Positions 16,984-54,025 of a DNA stretch of 54,025 nucleotides are shown one piece after another. This DNA is from Opitutaceae bacterium (lineage in GTDB: Bacteria > Verrucomicrobiota > Verrucomicrobiia > Opitutales > Opitutaceae), in assembly GCA_030648295.1 (NCBI GenBank), contig JAUSID010000198.1, positions 1 through 54,025 on the forward strand, in the 5' to 3' direction. The position numbers were made by a program, and so were the translations under genes. Positions within the stretch are counted from its first letter, which is position 1. The number at the start of each line of letters is the position of its first letter. A model generated the notes under the pieces. That model did no database searches, was not told the DNA's origin, and saw only the letters and a program-made list of their open reading frames with translations.

Positions 16984-18141
16984 ATGCTCAAACTCGCCAT
17001 TCTCGGCACCGGTGCGATCTCCGACAGTCACATCAATGCGTACCTCGCGCACCGGGATGAGGCCGAGATCGTGGCGCTCGTCGATCTGTTCCCGGACAAG
17101 GCGGCGGAGAAGGCCGCGCGGTACGGACTCGCCGCACGTGTTTTCAAGGACCACGACGAACTGCTCCGCGGCTGTGATTTCGATGCCGCCTCGATTTGCC
17201 TGCCACCGTTCGAACACGCGCCGGCCGCGGTCGCGCTCCTGCGCGCGGGCAAGCACGTGCTCACCGAGAAACCGATGGCCACCTGCCTCGAAGAATGCGA
17301 CCAGATGCTCGCGGCCGCGCGTGCGAGCCACCGGGTGCTCGGAGTGGTGGCGCAGAATCGATTCAAGACGCCGATGATGAAATTGAAGCGGGTGCTCGAG
17401 GCGGGGCTGATCGGCCGCGTCCTCCATGCCCAGGTCGATTCATTCTGGTGGCGGGGGAGCAATTATTACGACTTGTGGTGGCGCGGCACCTGGGGACGCG
17501 AAGGCGGCGGCTGCACCATGAACCATGCCGTGCACCAGATTGATCTGTTTCTCTGGATGATGGGACTGCCCGCCACCGTGCAGTCGATGTCGCTCAACCT
17601 CGCGCATGAAAACTCGGAGGTGGAGGACTTTTCCACGAGCGTGCTCACCTACCCAAATGGCAGCGTCGGGCAAATCACCGCGTCGCTCATCCACCATGGC
17701 GAGGAGCAGCAAGTTGTTTTCCAAGGCGAACGCGCGAAGATCGCCGTCCCCTGGCAGATCAAAGCCAGCGTACAAAAGGAAAACGGATTCCCGCAGGACA
17801 ACGCCGCTCTCACCGCGGAGATCCAGGCTTTCTACGACCAGCTGCCGGAGGTTTCGCGCGAAGGGCACTACGGCCAGATCGCGAACTTCCTCGCCGCGAT
17901 TGCGGGTCGCGAAGCGCTGCTTGTCGATGGAGAGCAAGGCCGCCGCACGCTCGAACTCATCACCGCGATTTATCAGTCCGGGCATCTCGATCAGCGCGTG
18001 AAACTGCCGCTCGCGTCGGATGCTCCGTTCTATTCGCGCGATGGCATCTTGAAACACGCCGGCCACTTCCACGAAAAGACCCGTAACGTGGAAAATTTCG
18101 CGAGTAACGATATCACGCTGGGCCGGAATGTCGGAAGGTGA
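16984..18141 (+). CDS. Gfo/Idh/MocA-family NAD(P)-dependent oxidoreductase
   Basis: Cytoplasmic sugar or cyclitol dehydrogenase type, 385 residues from ATG 16984 (MLKLAILGTGAISDSHINAY); the frame is open further upstream but only through repeat DNA. The Rossmann fingerprint is G-T-G-A-I-S at residues 8-13, the conserved E95-K96-P97 lies in HVLTEKPMA, and the catalytic-domain GGGCTMNHAVHQIDLFLW carries the usual His/Asp. The C-terminal beta-sheet is complete (NGSVGQITASLIHHGEEQ). The substrate is unknown. Its stop codon TGA is inside the first unit of an octamer repeat array. No signal peptide, in contrast to the Tat-exported homologue at 19612-21006. Confidence 0.92.
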   Translation: MLKLAILGTGAISDSHINAYLAHRDEAEIVALVDLFPDKAAEKAARYGLAARVFKDHDELLRGCDFDAASICLPPFEHAPAAVALLRAGKHVLTEKPMATCLEECDQMLAAARASHRVLGVVAQNRFKTPMMKLKRVLEAGLIGRVLHAQVDSFWWRGSNYYDLWWRGTWGREGGGCTMNHAVHQIDLFLWMMGLPATVQSMSLNLAHENSEVEDFSTSVLTYPNGSVGQITASLIHHGEEQQVVFQGERAKIAVPWQIKASVQKENGFPQDNAALTAEIQAFYDQLPEVSREGHYGQIANFLAAIAGREALLVDGEQGRRTLELITAIYQSGHLDQRVKLPLASDAPFYSRDGILKHAGHFHEKTRNVENFASNDITLGRNVGR

Positions 18142-18229
18142 GTCGGTGAAGCGGTAAGACGGTGAATCGGTTGTCGGTGAATCGGTGGTCGGTTGTCGGT
18201 GAGGCGGTGGATCGGCGAGGCGGTGAAGC
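18137..18229 (+). repeat. degenerate octamer tandem array, forward arm
   Basis: Twelve head-to-tail units, nine 8-mers and three 7-mers, every one starting GG and ending C: GGTGAGTC, GGTGAAGC, GGTAAGAC, GGTGAATC, GGTTGTC, GGTGAATC, GGTGGTC, GGTTGTC, GGTGAGGC, GGTGGATC, GGCGAGGC, GGTGAAGC. The TGA stop of the upstream gene lies in unit one. It faces an inverted array at 18411-18563. Confidence 0.9.
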
Positions 18230-18297
18230 ATTTTGTAGGGCGTCCGCTCGCGGACGCCGCGTAACCAGTCCGAACCGCACGACGGCGTCTGTCCCTC

Positions 18298-18390
18298 TCG
18301 GGACCCTGAGCCGGTTCGACAGGCTCACGGCCATCTGCTGCTGCTTCGAGTGAAAGGCCTTGAGCTTGTCGAGAGGCTTGTCGAACGGGC
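18298..18390. repeat. GACAGGCTC / GAGCTTGTCGA element between the two octamer arms
   Basis: CTCGGGACCCTGAGCCGG, TTCGACAGGCTCACGG, then GGCCTTGAGCTTGTCGAGAG and GGCTTGTCGAACGGG. The same words occur at 16727-16795. They are mutually complementary (GACAGGCTCA versus TTGAGCTTGTC) and would fold as a hairpin at the tip of the larger one. Before it, 18233-18262 holds a further palindrome, GGCGTCCGCTCGCGGACGCC. Confidence 0.6.
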
Positions 18391-18410
18391 AAGCAGACGC
18401 CCTGCTATGG

Positions 18411-18563
18411 TCACCGAACGGTTTCACCGACTGACCGACCGACCACCGATTCACCGTCGACCGCCTCACCGCTTCACCGCCTCACCGCCTCACCGACGAC
18501 AGCTTCACCGTCGACCGCCTCACCGCTTCACCGCCTCACCGACGACAGCTTCACCGACCGACC
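18411..18563 (-). repeat. degenerate octamer tandem array, inverted arm
   Basis: Read on the minus strand the units again start GG and end C. On the plus strand they are GTTTCACC, GACTGACC, GATTCACC, GTCGACC, GCCTCACC, GCTTCACC and so on. A higher-order duplication is visible: a ~46-base block from GTCGACCGCC to GACGACAGCTTCACC occurs twice (about 18457-18508 and 18511-18555). The last 11 or so codons of the UroD-like gene are encoded inside the array. Confidence 0.88.
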
Positions 18564-19598
18564 GTTGAATTCCGCCAGCGCGTCGACCATCGCCCGGATA
18601 TTCGCGGCTGGCATCCCGGGACTCGTGCCGCCGCCGAGCGAGAGGATGATGCCTTCGCCGCCACTTTTCTCGAGCACGTCCAGCGTCGCCGTTCGCACCT
18701 GCGCGGCCGTGCCGCGCACGCCGACTTCGAGGGGATTCACGTTTCCCATCAGGCACATCCGCCCCCCGACCCGCCGCTTCACGTCGGCGATATCCGTTTG
18801 TTTGCCCCAATTCAGGACCTGAAACCCGGCGTCGGGCAGGTGCTCGAGGCAGGCCTCGATCGACGCGTCGTTGTGATAAACCCTGATCCACGACGGTGGA
18901 AATGCATCGCAGATCCGTTTCAAATACGGGTGACAGAACTCGCGGTAGTGCTCCTCGCCCACGAAACCGACCAAATCATCGAGCATGAAAATACCCTCGA
19001 CCGTCGACCCCATCGCCTGGGCCTGAGCCTTGAGCCAGTCGATAATCAGCCGCGTGCACAGATCGAGCAGCCGGTGCGCAGCTTCAGGTGACTCCACCAG
19101 ATCCATCATGAACTCCGTCGTCCCGCGGAGGAATCCGGCGGTGCACATCGGACCGCGGGCGGTGGCCATCGGCAGGATTTCCCCCGTATCCAGAATCCGC
19201 TGTCGGTGCATCCGCATGCGATGCAGCGTAAGTCCCATGAAGGCATCACTCTCGACCTCGTAGGCGCCAATCTTGTCGATGTCCTCGAGCCGAAAGAGCG
19301 TCGAACTCTCGCTCGGCGTGTTGTGCGGCCAGAACTTGATCTTGGCCCCCAAGGCTGACGGCTCCGCCGCCATGCCGTATTCCATCCACCACGATGGAAA
19401 GAAGATGATGTCCGGATGCTCGCGGTGAATCCGCTGGTGCGCCTGGAACCACACCTCGGGATCAAGATAAAAGTCCAGGTGGTTGAGGCCGAGGTAGCCG
19501 GGAATCCACGGGCTGTCGATGATCAGCGCCATCGGCACGCGATCGAGTTTCTCGAGCCGCGCGGCCCGCTTGAAGACCTCCCATTGCTCCCGTCTCAT
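18528..19598 (-). CDS. uroporphyrinogen-decarboxylase-like (MtaA/CmuA-type) protein
   Basis: 356 residues from ATG 19598 (MRREQWEVFKRAARLEKLDR). This branch of the URO-D fold includes cobalamin-dependent methyltransferases and unassigned enzymes, not only haem-pathway decarboxylase. Features seen: RVPMALIIDSPWIPGYLG near the N-terminus, DIIFFPSWWMEYGM, RGPMCTAGFLRGTTEFMMDL, EGIFMLDDLVGFVGEEHY, the VYHNDASIEACLEHLPDAGF strand, MCLMGNVNPLEV and a closing GGGTSPGMPAANIRAM. It starts 13 bases after the stop of the Tat oxidoreductase, so they form an operon. The natural C-terminus probably ended around residue 345; the last residues (FNGRSVKLSSVRR) come from octamer repeat DNA. Confidence 0.85.
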   Translation of the reverse strand: MRREQWEVFKRAARLEKLDRVPMALIIDSPWIPGYLGLNHLDFYLDPEVWFQAHQRIHREHPDIIFFPSWWMEYGMAAEPSALGAKIKFWPHNTPSESSTLFRLEDIDKIGAYEVESDAFMGLTLHRMRMHRQRILDTGEILPMATARGPMCTAGFLRGTTEFMMDLVESPEAAHRLLDLCTRLIIDWLKAQAQAMGSTVEGIFMLDDLVGFVGEEHYREFCHPYLKRICDAFPPSWIRVYHNDASIEACLEHLPDAGFQVLNWGKQTDIADVKRRVGGRMCLMGNVNPLEVGVRGTAAQVRTATLDVLEKSGGEGIILSLGGGTSPGMPAANIRAMVDALAEFNGRSVKLSSVRR

Positions 19599-19611
19599 CG
19601 CGGAGACGCCA

Positions 19612-21006
19612 CTAGGTCCGCCCCCGCTTCGCGGCCAGACGTGTCGCGCCGTACGGTTCCCGCTCCGGGCGCGCGAGCATCGCGTTGGCTTCGGCGTCGC
19701 CGACAAACTTCTCCGCCTTCGGATCCCAGGTGAGCGGCCGGCCGAGCTTCATCGCAATCCAGCTCACGATGCACGCGGCGTTGCCCCGATGCGCGACTGG
19801 AGCGGGCACGAGCGGAGTCTTGCGCGAGCGTACGCATTCGAGCCAGTTCAAGTGATGCTCCTCGCTGCGCGGGAGTTCGACGGTCACGCCTTTCGGGTCG
19901 ATAAGTTTGTCGTTGCTCGCATCCAGCGGCCGCAACCGGCCCTTCGGCACCGCGGGGTCCTTGACCGACACGCTGCCGCGCGAGACAAAGATCCAGCCCT
20001 CGTCGCCGATGAACTTGAGCCCGTTGGGAAACTTGTCGGAAACCCTCACGTCCACCCCGCCCGGATATGTGAGGTGAATGTTATACGCGCCATGGACGTT
20101 CCAAATCTTGTTCTTCGGGAAGTCCGCCTTCCCCTCGATCCGGCTGGGGCCGCCGAGTTCACAGTCGAGCGCCCAGTGCAGGATGTCGTAGTGGTGCGCG
20201 CCCCACCCCGTGATCATGCCGAGGCAATACGCGTCGTTGCGCAGCCATCCGGGACGGCCGTAACCTTTTTGTGGATGCACGCGCTGCTCGGTGTAGGATG
20301 CGTTCGCCGTCGGCCCGAGCCAGCGTTCGTAGTCGAGATTGGCCGGTACCGGCTGCGGTGCATCGTCGGGGGCGGTCGGATCGATCGGCAGCCCGATCTC
20401 GACCCGTTTCACCCGGCCGACGCGGCCGCTGCGGACCATTTCGCAGGCTTTGCGGAACTGCGAGTAATTGCAGCGCTGCTGGCTGCCGAGCTGGAAAATC
20501 CGTCCCGTCTTCTCCACCGCCGTGCGCAGCAGGATCCCCTCCGCGTGCGTCATCGTCATCGGCTTTTGCAGGTAAACATCCTTGCCCGCATAAACCGCCG
20601 CGAGCGCGAGCTCCGCGTGCCAGTGATCCGGCGTGCTGATGGCGACGGCATCGATGTCTTTTCGGGCGAGCAGCTCGCGGTAGTCGCCAAAAACGGAGAT
20701 CTGCGACGGCTTCGTTCCCTTCTCGGCATGCAATCCCTCCACGCGCTTCTTACCGTCGGCGGCGCGTTTGGAATCGAGGTCGCACACCGCCACGATGTCG
20801 GCGAGCCCCGAGTGGAATACGCTGGGCATGTCGTGATCGCGTCCGATCCGGCCGCAACCGATGTGGCCCACGCGGACGCGGTTGCTCGGCGCACTGGCGC
20901 CTCGCAGTCGGGCCGGGATGATGTTGGGGAGGGCGATGGTGCCGGCGGCCAACAGCGACAGTCGGCCGAATTCACGACGGGTGAGATTCGAATTCGGGGT
21001 CTTCAT
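19612..21006 (-). CDS. Tat-exported Gfo/Idh/MocA-family oxidoreductase
   Basis: 464 residues from ATG 21006. The N-terminus is a twin-arginine signal (NLTRREFGRLSLLAAGTIALP). The NAD-binding domain follows with VRVGHIGCGRIGRDHDMPS (GxGxxG-like), AVCDLDSKRA, AISTPDHWHAELALAA and the LQKPMTMTHAEG version of the EKP motif. The catalytic domain includes GMITGWGAHHYDILHWAL with the conserved Gly/His residues. Tat-exported members of this family with their cofactor bound are common in Verrucomicrobiota and Planctomycetota; substrates are mostly unknown glycosides. It is the first gene of a two-gene unit with the UroD-like protein. Confidence 0.9.
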   Translation of the reverse strand: MKTPNSNLTRREFGRLSLLAAGTIALPNIIPARLRGASAPSNRVRVGHIGCGRIGRDHDMPSVFHSGLADIVAVCDLDSKRAADGKKRVEGLHAEKGTKPSQISVFGDYRELLARKDIDAVAISTPDHWHAELALAAVYAGKDVYLQKPMTMTHAEGILLRTAVEKTGRIFQLGSQQRCNYSQFRKACEMVRSGRVGRVKRVEIGLPIDPTAPDDAPQPVPANLDYERWLGPTANASYTEQRVHPQKGYGRPGWLRNDAYCLGMITGWGAHHYDILHWALDCELGGPSRIEGKADFPKNKIWNVHGAYNIHLTYPGGVDVRVSDKFPNGLKFIGDEGWIFVSRGSVSVKDPAVPKGRLRPLDASNDKLIDPKGVTVELPRSEEHHLNWLECVRSRKTPLVPAPVAHRGNAACIVSWIAMKLGRPLTWDPKAEKFVGDAEANAMLARPEREPYGATRLAAKRGRT

Positions 21007-21557
21007 ACGGGGTGCATTCGGGACGAAGCGCTGGCAGTTGTTCACCAGCCGCGAAAGGACGCAAGTACGGCGTCCGCGACGCCCAATCTATAAGCCACGT
21101 CGATGCCGCAAAATGGCCGATGAATGAGGGGAAGACGCGAGAGACTGGGGAGACGCGGAAGGTGCCCGAAGACGCGGAAGACGGGAAGATGCCCGAAGAC
21201 GTGAAAGACGCGGAAGACTTGGAAGACACGATCCATTACGTGGAGGGCCGGGCTCTGCCCCGGCCGCGTAAGACGATCGAATCGTCATGAAACGGCATGA
21301 CGTTCCCTCTTGTTTTTCGGACGGCGCGGAGGCCGTCCCTCCATGAATGGGATTCCGAGTGTGGCATGAGGCGTCTCGCCCAGGATCCGGCGGGCGCGAC
21401 TCGACCACGGGCAGGATGCCCGCGCCACTTCCAAGCCGAATCGCGTCTTGTCCGATCGTGGCATGATGCGTCGCGCCCGTGCCTAGCCCGCGCTGCGCGG
21501 CACTGCGGGCAGAATGGCCGTGCCACTTCCACGCCACGGCGCCATTTGTTCCGCTCG
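21007..21557. other. 551-base intergenic region with tandem and palindromic repeats
   Basis: No gene is supported. After a nonamer array (21129-21230) come a GC palindrome (GGGCCGGGCTCTGCCCCGGC, 21245-21264), a GGAGGCCGTCCCTCCATG element (21329-21346), and two copies of GTGGCATGAxGCGTCxCGCCC (21361-21381 and 21459-21480) flanking GGCAGGATGCCCGCGCCACTTCC-like words (21410-21433; 21508-21531). Confidence 0.6.
21129..21230 (+). repeat. degenerate nonamer tandem array (GGAAGACGC type)
   Basis: Tandem 9-mers around the consensus GGAAGACGC: GAAGACGCG, GAAGACGGG, AAGATGCCC, GAAGACGTG, AAAGACGCG, GAAGACTTG, GAAGACACG. The invariant part is AGAC/AGATG. It is a different unit from the octamer arrays but similar in style (short, degenerate, intergenic). 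A two-unit inverted trace (GGTCTTCCAGGTCTTCC) is at 27608-27626. Confidence 0.7.
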
Positions 21558-23593: not shown

Positions 23594-23604
23594 GGCTGAT
23601 GGCC

Positions 23605-23692
23605 GGATGGCCGGATGGTCGGATGATCGGATGATCGGATGGGCGGATGGGCGGATGATCGGATGATCGGTGTGTCGGTACGACGGTGATTC
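23605..23692 (+). repeat. octamer tandem array, GGATG variant
   Basis: Eleven perfect-length units: GGATGGCC, GGATGGTC, GGATGATC (x2), GGATGGGC (x2), GGATGATC (x2), GGTGTGTC, GGTACGAC, GGTGATTC. All start GG and end C; the last three drift toward the GGTGA type seen at 18 and 54 kb, which links the two flavours. Confidence 0.88.
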
Positions 23693-23723
23693 GATCGCAC
23701 GGTGCGGATCGAGTGGTTCGTCC

Positions 23724-36281: not shown

Positions 36282-36502
36282 GGCGTTCCGGATACGCGGT
36301 CGAGCGACACGCCGCAACGTCAAAGCCGCGTCGCGCCAGTTCTGAGTTCTGGGTTTTGGGTTTTGGGTTCTGGATTCTGAGTTCGCCTCCTACCGCGAGT
36401 GATTCGCCGTCTGCGGCCCGGGCGTCGCCGTGGCGAACTGCGCCGCCGAAAATCCTGCGATTGCGGCGGCGCGACAGTTTGTTCATCTGCCTTGTTACCC
36501 CT

Positions 36503-52221: not shown

Positions 52222-53244
52222 CTAAACCGTCTCACCGACGTGGCGCGCGAAAATCATTTTCCCACCCGCGGTGGGCAGCACGCTGACAATCTCGGCGTGG
52301 ACGCGCTGGCCGATATGGGGCCGGCCGTTGTTTACGACCACCATCGACCCATCTTCGACGTAGCCGACCGCCTGCCCGTCCTCCTTGCCCGGCTTCACCA
52401 AGTCCACCTCGATCCGTTCGCCAAGCATCAGCTCGGGCCGCAGCGATTTCGCCAGGGCGTTGAGGTTCAACCACTGCACCCCGTGAAACTCGGCCATTTT
52501 TGCGAGATTGTAGTCGGTCGTGAGCAGCTTCGCCCGCATCGACTGCGCAAGAAACACGAGCTTGGCGTCAACGTCTTCGCGCTTGCTCACCACACTCTCC
52601 GTGATCCGGATATCCACGTTCTTGATGCGGCGCAGCTCATTGAGCACTTCGAGGCCACGCCGGCCGCGCGCCTGCTTCAACGGATCGTTCGAGTCCGCGA
52701 CGGCCCGCAACTCGTTCAACACAAAGCGCGGGATGACCAGCCCGGCATTGAGAAACCCGCTGTCACAGATTCGCGCAACCCGCCCGTCGATCAGTACACT
52801 GGTGTCGACCACAACCAGGGGAATGTCGACCTCGTGCGGGACAAACCGCACGTACGGAATGATGAGGTTGAATTCGTCCTTTCCGCGCAGGGCGATGACG
52901 ATCGCCAGGTAGGGGCAGATGAGAAACAACGCCAGTTGCGCGAGGTAGATCCTGGTCGGATCGAAATCCTTGCCGTAGGCGAAAAGTGGTGACGTGCCGA
53001 CCATGTGCGCGATCAGCCCGCCCAGCGCGATGCCGAGCGTGACGGCCGACAGTCCGCGCAGCGAAAACCCCTTGAGCAGAAAATCAACCAGCACGACGAG
53101 CAGGCCGATGCACAGGCCCACGGTGAACGCCACGCCGCGGTAGCGGTCCCAGTCGGTGATGGTGTAGCAAACGAGCCACCCCGCCGCCGCACACAGGGCA
53201 ACAAATACGATGCGGATCGGAAGCAGGGTCTTGTCGATGGACAT
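52222..53244 (-). CDS. PIN-TRAM membrane protein (YacL-like)
   Basis: 340 residues, start ATG 53244. Four N-terminal hydrophobic segments (IRIVFVALCAAAGWLVCYTI, VAFTVGLCIGLLVVLVDFLL, LSAVTLGIALGGLIAHMVGT, LAQLALFLICPYLAIVIALR), a PIN nuclease domain (VVVDTSVLIDGRVARICDSG, IPRFVLNELRAVADSNDPLK, LLTTDYNLAKMAEFHGV with its acidic residues intact) and a C-terminal TRAM domain (DGQAVGYVEDGSMVVVNNGR then PHIGQRVHAEIVSVL). The YacL family is widespread in bacteria and its RNA target is unclear. A 38-codon gene ends six bases before its start. Confidence 0.9.
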   Translation of the reverse strand: MSIDKTLLPIRIVFVALCAAAGWLVCYTITDWDRYRGVAFTVGLCIGLLVVLVDFLLKGFSLRGLSAVTLGIALGGLIAHMVGTSPLFAYGKDFDPTRIYLAQLALFLICPYLAIVIALRGKDEFNLIIPYVRFVPHEVDIPLVVVDTSVLIDGRVARICDSGFLNAGLVIPRFVLNELRAVADSNDPLKQARGRRGLEVLNELRRIKNVDIRITESVVSKREDVDAKLVFLAQSMRAKLLTTDYNLAKMAEFHGVQWLNLNALAKSLRPELMLGERIEVDLVKPGKEDGQAVGYVEDGSMVVVNNGRPHIGQRVHAEIVSVLPTAGGKMIFARHVGETV

Positions 53245-53250
53245 GTCAGC

Positions 53251-53367
53251 TCAGCGCAAGCGCAGGAGGAAAATCATGGCGGGAATGCCAATCATCAGAG
53301 CCATGAGCACGACCAGCAAAAGCTGGACGCGCCGGGCTTTGAGCTTTTCAGCCTCGCTGGCTTGCAT
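53251..53367 (-). CDS. 38-residue single-pass membrane protein
   Basis: ATG 53367 to stop 53251: MQASEAEKLKARRVQLLLVV then LMALMIGIPAMIFLLRLR. Charged amphipathic N-terminus, one strongly hydrophobic helix, basic end; stop is six bases before the PIN-TRAM gene start, so they would be co-translated. No family recognised. The plus-strand EVE gene starts 30 bases away on the other side. Confidence 0.6.
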   Translation of the reverse strand: MQASEAEKLKARRVQLLLVVLMALMIGIPAMIFLLRLR

Positions 53368-53397
53368 TTCGTTGCAGCGGACCAAAGGCCCTGCTTC

Positions 53398-53808
53398 ATG
53401 ACAACGCAATACTGGCTGGTGAAATCCGAACCGGGTTCCTACGCGTGGACCGATCTCGTTCGCGACGGCCACACGGAGTGGACGGGCGTGAGAAACTTTG
53501 CCGCGCGCAATCATCTGCGCCAGATGAAGCGGGGCGATCGCGTTTTGTTTTACGAAAGTGGCGCGCCGAAGGCCGTGATGGGCATAGCGCAAGTGACTCG
53601 CGCCGCATTCGAGGACAAGACCGCCGACGAACCCGGCTGGGTGGCAGTCGAGTTGAAGGCGGTCAAGCCGCTGAAAACTCCGGTTGAACTCGCCGCGATC
53701 AAAGCCGAGCCATCGATGAAACAGATGGCCTTGCTGCGTATTTCGCGGCTTTCGGTGCAGCCGGTCTCGGCGGCGGAATTCGAGCGGATCCTCGAACTCG
53801 GCAAGTAA
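53398..53808 (+). CDS. EVE-domain protein
   Basis: 136 residues from ATG 53398 (MTTQYWLVKSEPGSYAWTDL). The EVE/PUA-like fold is seen in RNA- or modified-base-binding proteins; hallmark YWLVKSEPxxYxWxDL, TEWTGVRNFAARNHLRQMKR, GDRVLFYESGAPKAVMGIAQ, GWVAVELKAVKPLKTPV, MALLRISRLSVQPVSAAEFE. Complete and typical length. Its TAA is followed after two bases by an octamer repeat array. Confidence 0.92.
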   Translation: MTTQYWLVKSEPGSYAWTDLVRDGHTEWTGVRNFAARNHLRQMKRGDRVLFYESGAPKAVMGIAQVTRAAFEDKTADEPGWVAVELKAVKPLKTPVELAAIKAEPSMKQMALLRISRLSVQPVSAAEFERILELGK

Positions 53809-53810
53809 TC

Positions 53811-53856
53811 GGTGAAGCGGTGAGACGGTGAGACGGTGGTCGGTGGTCGGTGAAGT
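53811..53856 (+). repeat. degenerate octamer tandem array, forward arm (second locus)
   Basis: GGTGAAGC, GGTGAGAC, GGTGAGAC, GGTGGTC, GGTGGTC, GGTGAAGT: same unit rule as at 18137-18229, starting two bases after the EVE stop. Confidence 0.85.
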
Positions 53857-53930
53857 GGAGACAAAGCCGCTAGAAAGCGGACCGCAGCGGCTCAATTCCC
53901 TTGCCTCTTTGCCCCATGCTCTTTGCTCAG

Positions 53931-54025
53931 CACCGTCTCACCGTCTCACCGTCTCACCGTCTCACCGTCTCACCGTCTCACCGTCTCACCGTCTCACCGT
54001 CTCACCGTCTCACCGTCTCACCGTC
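53931..54025 (-). repeat. homogeneous octamer array, inverted arm, running off the window
   Basis: CACCGTCT repeated without change about twelve times to the window end (GGTGAGAC on the minus strand). Complementary to the forward arm 75 bases earlier. Confidence 0.92.

What the first reader, a model, noticed from the sequence alone, without database searches (positions are those of the whole stretch)
18137..18563. Facing arrays of degenerate octamers between convergent genes
Twelve units, all starting GG and ending C, run forward (18137-18229); after a ~180-base centre with its own hairpin elements, about 16 units run in reverse (18411-18563). Positions 3-7 vary freely while the GG...C frame is kept, and occasional 7-mers are tolerated, which is not what slippage of one word alone gives. 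The upstream gene's TGA is inside unit one and the last ~11 codons of the opposing UroD-like gene are made of repeat units. Either strand's RNA could fold into a >90-bp imperfect stem. A terminator, RNA-stability or nucleoid-protein site are possible roles; I know no described family with this rule.
Basis: partly seen in the sequence, partly recalled or inferred. Interest (0 to 1): 0.8.

Follow-up and report, generated by a model that had tools for sequence, protein, structure and literature searches.

The report
Polar repeat arrays at gene edges
Between these two genes lie two runs of a sloppy 8-letter repeat that point at each other; they belong to a mixed crowd of short repeats, in this genome and in others, that tend strongly to start near a gene's edge and run away from it on the G-rich strand, a pattern known for one such repeat and still unexplained.

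Summary
The facing pair is not unique: in sampled stretches of this genome, arrays of 6-12-base units occur at about 73 per Mb, in at least ten unit families, and follow one polarity whatever the unit: the G-rich strand tends to start at a gene edge and run away from the gene. Within 10 bases of a stop codon lie 46 array 5' ends and 6 array 3' ends (22:5 if the stop must stand intact before the array). In 48 of 49 intergenic regions with several arrays, all rightward arrays precede all leftward ones (shuffles: mean 31.3, maximum 41). Array-free stop ends show no skew. Stretches of four genomes from Bacteroidota, Nitrospirae and Acidobacteria give 39:1 at stops; a genus mate gives 0:2. Rehm et al. 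2015 described the border rule and convergent pairs for GGGNATC-type heptamers, so the kind is known; the unit, and the rule's independence of the unit, extend it. Mechanism is unproven. I favour slippage-born arrays filtered by orientation, so that transcription running into a gene makes C-rich, Rho-loadable RNA (0.35); a polar DNA-end process, neutrality and hairpin roles remain open. The array is absent at the orthologs compared.

The parts
18137..18229 (+). Forward array: 12 units, GGTGAnnC-type 8-mers and GGTNGTC-type 7-mers; begins on the stop codon of the upstream gene
18139..18141 (+). Native stop codon TGA, inside unit 1; the ortholog in genome G023 ends with the same residues (GRNVGR*) and shows no such array in the 420 bases printed
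18230..18410 (.). Centre between the arrays: hairpin-forming stretch GTAGGGCGTCCGCTCGCGGACGCC and palindromic words TTCGACAGGCTCA / GAGCTTGTCGA; the latter words recur in the genome sample
   Evidence: resemblance to GTAG-tagged REPs judged from PMC3733652 (abstract and one section read)
18411..18563 (-). Opposing array, G-rich strand on minus; regular part 18433-18563; 18438-18541 holds a 54-base period repeated at 94%
18528..18563 (-). Last 11 sense codons and the stop of the UroD-family gene, made of repeat units; orthologs end shortly after the same EFN residues
16948..18141 (+). GFO/IDH/MocA-family oxidoreductase gene (start uncertain)
18528..19706 (-). Uroporphyrinogen-decarboxylase-family (PF01208) gene (start uncertain; my caller puts it at 19598)
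21130..21227 (+). Second family in the window: degenerate 9-mer array GGAAGACnn
23598..23708 (+). 8-mer array CGGATGnn followed by degenerate GGTG units
36339..36384 (+). 7-mer array GTTCTGG
53811..53856 (+). Second GGTG array, starting 2 bases after the TAA of an ORF ending at 53808
53927..54025 (-). Facing partner of 53811-53856: perfect GGTGAGAC copies (53931-54025) running off the contig end

Best explanation
Shown: the locus is the convergent-gene case of a genome-wide class of short-unit, degenerate tandem arrays whose G-rich strand tends to start at a gene edge and run away from the gene. Each gene carries its own array, so a convergent pair yields facing arrays. Inferred: the arrays arise by replication slippage and duplication of short segments next to gene ends, and are then filtered by orientation. 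An array read outward from a gene gives G-rich RNA; the same array read by a polymerase heading into the gene gives long, unstructured, C-rich RNA that the terminator protein Rho can load on. Arrays of the wrong orientation would make Rho end the gene's own transcript and are lost; those that remain act as one-way fences against antisense and read-through transcription.
For: Polarity: array 5' end within 10 bases of a stop 46, 3' end 6 (offsets below zero included); counting only arrays that begin 0-10 bases after an intact stop, 22 to 5; 5' end nearer a gene than the 3' end in 152 of 188 arrays with both borders known (convergent 35:4, codirectional sense 46:6, codirectional antisense 53:23, divergent 18:3). 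Order rule 48 of 49 regions, with 23 of 37 facing pairs of different families, so it follows side and skew, not one unit. It is not inherited from background at stops: array-free stop ends have GC skew -0.009 to 0.006. Polarity grows with (G-C)/length, from 11:7 below 0.1 to 28:3 at 0.4 or more (orientation noise at low skew would do the same). By a simplified form of the published rut rule (78 nt, C over G, C every 11-13 nt; PMC6407284, passages read), the 51 stop ends with an array have C/G above 2 in 63% for incoming and 16% for outgoing RNA; 431 array-free ends 5% and 8%. The C-strand RNA of 18137-18229 folds less well than all 200 shuffles. A rho gene is present.
Against: No transcript data. 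Array-free gene ends show no incoming C-richness, so no general need for a fence is visible. The array is not conserved: orthologs of the two flanking genes (three UroD-family, one GFO) lack it. Polarity is also present in arrays under 40 bases (43:12), too short for a rut site. The C-strand RNA of the right array is not unusually unfolded (145 of 200 shuffles fold at least as well), and in a facing pair the C-rich arm can pair with the G-rich arm, which would hide it from Rho. The low-skew unit family GACCAG is still polar (11:2) while the more skewed GATTTCGG is not (5:5). In loci of many phyla, divergent regions ran the other way, 3:11. A genus mate gave 0:2 at stops. Start-side polarity partly follows background skew (0.188 in the first 20 bases).
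Confidence: 0.35

Rival explanations
1. A polar DNA process makes the arrays: G-rich units are added at, or copied from, 3' ends of DNA pointing into the intergenic region (break repair, templated end-joining, or a repeat-adding enzyme). Facing pairs are two such ends joined, and stacked arrays are repeated events. Orientation is set by DNA ends, not by selection on RNA.
For: In this genome the rule is symmetric about genes, at stops and starts; different families stack in one orientation (18 of 31 tandem neighbours) and 9 of 37 facing pairs meet head to head 1-8 bases apart; regions with arrays are longer even after subtracting the arrays, which fits insertion, though long regions may simply hold more arrays; short arrays are polar too; telomerase-like repeat synthesis exists in bacteria (DRT10, preprint PMC12632851, abstract and discussion read).
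Against: Both RVT_1 genes found in this genome are group II intron maturases (TIGR04416 above cut-off). No age gradient was seen: decay of the unit frame on the two flanks of 77 cores is alike. Chance breaks would not put 46 of 95 stop-side 5' junctions within 10 bases of the stop or inside the gene end.
Confidence: 0.2
2. Purely neutral simple-sequence repeats: slippage makes arrays, purifying selection keeps them out of genes, and the orientation bias is a by-product of seeding from existing G-skewed words or of gene-edge composition.
For: Unit families differ between species (GGAAGAC 9-mer pattern in 3 of 38 genomes, GGTG pattern in 11 of 38, this genome counted); a 54-base block is duplicated inside the right array; the array is absent at orthologs; start-side skew exists without arrays.
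Against: Array-free stop ends have no skew; the order rule (48 of 49) and 46:6 at stops are unexplained; among the 17 arrays dropped as coding, none in C-rich-sense orientation lies near a stop (nearest 528 bases).
Confidence: 0.25
3. RNA structure: facing arrays form a long stem that ends or protects the 3' ends of both mRNAs, a bidirectional terminator or exonuclease barrier.
For: Strong predicted folding (z -12.25 and -9.20); regions with arrays relative to regions of at least 40 bases: convergent 28 to 102, codirectional 78 to 428, divergent 14 to 123 (sample enriched for arrays).
Against: 87 of 136 array regions hold one array only; a stem needs no fixed strand order, so it does not explain facing over diverging (37:2); 23 of 37 facing pairs are of different families; no stem with T-run found.
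Confidence: 0.15
4. Stop-codon barrier: units carry TGA out of phase so that a few units close all frames behind each gene.
For: Half of the 46 stop-border arrays, 24 of them GGTG, close all three frames on the G-strand, against 17% of shuffled ones.
Against: The 22 stop-border arrays of other families have no more stops than shuffled ones (0.031 against 0.033 per base; all frames closed 18%, shuffled 9%, opposite strand 18%). Where the stop precedes the array, stop usage is ordinary (TGA 13, TAG 6, TAA 3, against 570, 221, 130 in all called genes).
Confidence: 0.03

Closest known systems
GGGAATC / GGGGA(C/T)T heptamer repeats of Xanthomonas and Nostoc (Rehm et al. 2015, PMC4692102; abstract, introduction, three results sections and discussion read)
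   Same: Intergenic, degenerate, dispersed; in xanthomonads close to the ORF on their 5' side (mean 28 against 160 nt); [quoted passage not shown] 70 and 75 convergent pairs in two Xanthomonas genomes
   Different: 7-mers with G-tracts that form G-quadruplexes in vitro, four units favoured; here 8-mers with only GG, many unrelated families in one genome, and the rule seen across families and in further phyla
TAACTGA heptamers of Beggiatoaceae, cyanobacteria and Bacteroidetes (MacGregor 2015, PMC4679880; abstract, introduction and one results section read)
   Same: Short-unit intergenic arrays in distant phyla; small differences between two Cyanothece strains are mostly indels in 7-nt steps
   Different: In the Maribeggiatoa genome mostly just upstream of starts; equal G and C, so the strand rule is undefined; in a Microcystis sample eight sets between stops all had one chromosomal orientation
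STRR heptamers of cyanobacteria (recalled; one search shows only occurrence counts of the term)
   Same: Intergenic tandem heptamers
   Different: No polarity rule known to me
GTAG/CGTC-tagged REPs (Di Nocera et al. 2013, PMC3733652; abstract and one section read)
   Same: Mostly downstream of genes, often paired in opposite orientation, may supply stop codons; look-alike hairpin in the centre here
   Different: Single 20-40 bp palindromes, not tandem short units
Rho utilization (rut) sites (PMC6407284; abstract and passages read)
   Same: C over G for 78 nt with spaced C, met by the C-strand RNA here
   Different: Not repeats; activity not shown here

Membership tests
GGGNATC quadruplex heptamers | 7-base unit with a GGG tract | tested here: not met
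   536 8-mers and 228 7-mers parsed; the common units start GGT
GGGNATC quadruplex heptamers | G-strand 5' end close to an ORF, sense after stops | tested here: met
   46:6 within 10 bases of stops
GGGNATC quadruplex heptamers | Convergent pairs | tested here: met
   37 facing, 31 tandem, 2 diverging neighbours
GGGNATC quadruplex heptamers | Quadruplex formation in vitro | not testable with these tools
   Only GG tracts, 5-6 bases apart
TAACTGA heptamers | TAACTGA unit | tested here: not met
   unit spectrum
GTAG-tagged REP | 20-40 bp palindrome with GTAG end | tested here: not met
   Arrays are tandem 7-8-mers; only the centre resembles a REP
CRISPR | Repeats separated by unique spacers | tested here: not met
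   Units are contiguous
Intrinsic terminator | GC stem followed by T-run | tested here: not met
   0 found at 18000-18700; shuffles mean 0.6
Rho-dependent terminator | 78-nt C-rich window with spaced C | tested here: met
   At this locus C/G 3.15 and 3.6 in the last 150 bases before each opposing gene, none in the first 150 after each gene; over 51 array-bearing stop ends 63% incoming above 2
Rho-dependent terminator | Rho-dependent 3' ends | not testable with these tools
   no transcript data
Telomerase-like (DRT10) repeat synthesis | UG-type reverse transcriptase gene in the genome | tested here: not met
   Two RVT_1 hits, both group II intron maturases; UG types that PF00078 might miss were not sought separately
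Known RNA family | Rfam match | tested here: not met
   0 matches up to E 1 at 17500-19000

The most novel reading that the evidence does not exclude
Short-unit intergenic arrays in many bacterial phyla are footprints of one polar DNA-end process that lays G-rich units onto 3' ends facing into the intergenic space and then rejoins them, so that facing arrays are fused, telomere-like capped ends.
Probability: 0.07. Interest if true: 0.92.

Novelty: new variant of a known kind. Interest (0 to 1): 0.57.

Why it matters
Intergenic heptamer-type repeats have been described in several bacteria without an established function. A polarity that holds across unrelated units in one genome, recurs in other phyla, and is absent from array-free stop ends means either that transcription filters the arrays or that a directional DNA process makes them. 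Both can be tested directly, and the rule helps annotators tell such repeat-coded tails from real C-termini.

Tried and rejected
Seeding from stop codons or an all-frame stop barrier: non-GGTG arrays at stops have no stop excess per base, and where the stop precedes the array its usage is ordinary. Age gradient: a first measure gave purer 5' thirds (0.75 against 0.50, 64 arrays) but is biased by how chains end; the flank test showed no clear difference, so I make no claim. Replacement of intergenic DNA by growing arrays: residual intergenic length is larger, not smaller, in array regions. Mobile unit with fixed flanks: the flank clusters I looked at were mostly other repeat arrays and hairpins, with no constant ends (the listing shows up to nine members of up to twelve clusters). 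R-loop-driven expansion of sense arrays: codirectional antisense arrays are more, not fewer (76 against 52 with both borders known). Reverse-transcriptase source.

Limits. Gene calls come from my own codon-score caller in scripts; it missed at least one real-looking ORF (53005-53808), and starts are uncertain, so the stop-side counts carry the argument. Unit families were assigned by simple word counts. Loose chains are near control: four or more units 213 against 159 in reversed sequence; six or more 66 against 13; eight or more 36 against 7, with a stricter filter, 109 against 46. Rows dropped: 17 tandem-repeat hits inside called genes (listed), 3 GGTG chains as coding and others with fewer than three CGGT words or overlapping, L050 as masked. 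Weak-skew arrays (below 0.08 and 0.05) were dropped only in the tests on other genomes.

Full report
What is there. At 18137-18229 twelve units, nine 8-mers and three 7-mers, all GG...C, begin on the TGA of a GFO/IDH/MocA-family gene; after a centre of about 181 bases a second array with its G-rich strand on minus runs to 18563 and forms the last 11 sense codons and the stop of a UroD-family gene. Chance is excluded for the window: 23 matches of a three-unit pattern against a shuffled mean of 0.04. The unit rule is close to GGTGA-N-N-C for 8-mers and GGT-N-G-(T/G)-C for 7-mers; positions 6 and 7 are free, positions 3-5 mostly are not. In the right array 18438-18541 has a 54-base period at 94% match, a sign of segment duplication.

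How the gene ends look in relatives. Of 27 genomes searched in the genus, 4 (this one included) have the UroD-family gene and 2 (this one included) the GFO gene at E 1e-60 or better. The GFO ortholog in G023 ends in the same residues GRNVGR*, with no such array in the 420 bases printed, so the stop in unit 1 is the native one. UroD-family orthologs end as EFNGRR* (G023), EFNSRR* (G022) and EFNQAHFGLRR* (G003); here the end is EFNGRSVKLSSVRR*, so the array has overrun the old stop. None of the three shows this array, though G022 has a different, AGTGAA-type run downstream (read by eye).

Genome-wide. The genome is 9,122,190 bases in 294 contigs. GGTGNNNCGGTGNNNCGGTG matches 190 times, its reversed control 0; of 38 genomes (this one included) 11 have it, all of one genus. 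I read 1,390,773 bases: 79 stretches plus the window. Of the 40 stretches were chosen for known hits and 8 were not; those were laid at contig starts or end to end, some on contigs known to carry hits. Tandem Repeats Finder plus a GGTG chain search gave 211 intergenic arrays with units of 6-12 bases: GGTG 91, GAAGAC 23, GACCAG 15, CAGAGGT 11, GATTTCGG 10, GTTCTGG 10, AGTGA 10, CGGAGG 9, CGGATG 6, GTTTCGC 5, GTGGTCA 5, GAGGGA 2, other 14. In the 46 stretches not picked for an array position (846,838 bases: 19, 20, 7) there are 62 arrays, 73 per Mb.

The polarity rule. Orient each array so that G exceeds C. Its 5' end lies within 10 bases of a stop codon, or inside the gene end, in 46 cases, its 3' end in 6; of starts, 21 and 3. 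Counting only arrays that begin 0-10 bases after an intact stop, 22:5; 0-50 bases, 32:15. None of the 17 dropped coding arrays hides a C-rich-sense array near a stop (nearest 528 bases). In the 846,838-base subset: stops 18:1, starts 11:1, 9 facing, 8 tandem, 0 diverging neighbours. In the whole sample, neighbours within 450 bases: 37 facing, 31 tandem, 2 diverging; 23 of the 37 facing pairs are of different families. Of 49 intergenic regions with two or more arrays, 48 have all rightward arrays before all leftward ones; 2000 orientation shuffles gave a mean of 31.3 and a maximum of 41. Array-free stop ends have GC skew between -0.009 and 0.006 in five distance bins; array-free starts have 0.188 in the first 20 bases, so the start side is partly background.

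Other genomes. An exact scan for four GGTGAnnC units in genome contigs stopped at its limit with 117 stretches; the 80 titles listed include Bacteroidales, Chloroflexi, cyanobacteria, Planctomycetota, Nitrospirae, Acidobacteria, Streptomyces and other actinobacteria, proteobacteria and Verrucomicrobia. In the 117 loci (146 non-coding arrays): 17 facing, 5 tandem, 1 diverging neighbours; stop border within 15 bases 50 against 12; nearer end by context 27:11, 25:4 and 22:11 for the rule, but divergent regions 3:11 against it (crude longest-ORF gene calls). In longer stretches, partly placed at known hits: Bacteroidales 7:1, Zeaxanthinibacter 2:0, Nitrospirae 20:0, Acidobacteria 10:0, genus mate G023 0:2 at stops; starts 14:4 in all, with Nitrospirae 2:4; the order rule held in 18 of 25 regions, weaker than in this genome.

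What is known. Rehm et al. 2015 (PMC4692102; [quoted passage not shown] So placement and pairing are known for one G-rich heptamer type. That the rule is independent of the unit and shared by 8- and 9-mers in one genome I did not find in print in ten searches (one of them was about reverse transcriptases), which cover open PMC papers only.

How it may work. Facing arrays are the sum of one array per gene. Read outward from a gene the RNA is G-rich; read towards a gene it is C-rich. By a simplified rut rule after PMC6407284 (passages), 63% of 51 array-bearing stop ends have C/G above 2 for incoming RNA and 16% for outgoing; 431 array-free ends 5% and 8%; 41 ends with an array placed otherwise 22% and 44%. 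Here each outgoing transcript meets no rut-like window in its first 150 bases and a strong one (3.15, 3.6) in the last 150 before the opposing gene's end. The C-strand RNA of the left array is almost unfolded, that of the right array ordinary. Rho is encoded. This is why I put an orientation filter by Rho first, at 0.35. Against it: no asymmetry at array-free ends, no conservation, polarity of short arrays, and the C-rich arm's ability to pair with the G-rich arm. A directional DNA-end process explains the symmetry, the stacking and the head-to-head junctions (9 of 37 facing pairs 1-8 bases apart), but no repeat-adding enzyme was found: both reverse transcriptases are group II intron maturases.

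Verdict. A real, strongly patterned feature; a new variant of a known kind of repeat, with an unexplained polarity that is the interesting part.

Noticed in passing
window 53931-54025 and G000 contig C66 3-118: The window ends in perfect GGTGAGAC copies (minus strand) and another contig begins with the same array in the same orientation; the two contigs were probably split inside one array.
   Followed up: no
window 18230-18410: Centre holds a GTAG-tagged REP-like hairpin and TTCGACAGGCTCA / GAGCTTGTCGA palindromic words; the latter two recur 16 and 17 times in 1.39 Mb.
   Followed up: partly
genomes G004, G005 (same genus): The GGTG pattern matches 34 and 10 times there, and the places listed are mostly another octamer type, GGTG-N-CTC, rather than GGTGAnnC.
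   Followed up: no
window 53005-53808: ORF whose C-terminal half looks like an EVE-domain protein (recalled resemblance, not searched); ends 2 bases before an array and was missed by my gene caller.
   Followed up: no
L188, L190, L192 (twice), L200, L209, just before GGTG arrays: Six arrays are preceded by nearly the same CGC-(G/A)-AGAC-n-n-CGATC junction, suggesting copying of composite segments between sites.
   Followed up: partly
G000 C245:6991-8220 and C247:11036-12145: Two Rho-like genes, one above and one below the NCBIfam cut-off.
   Followed up: no
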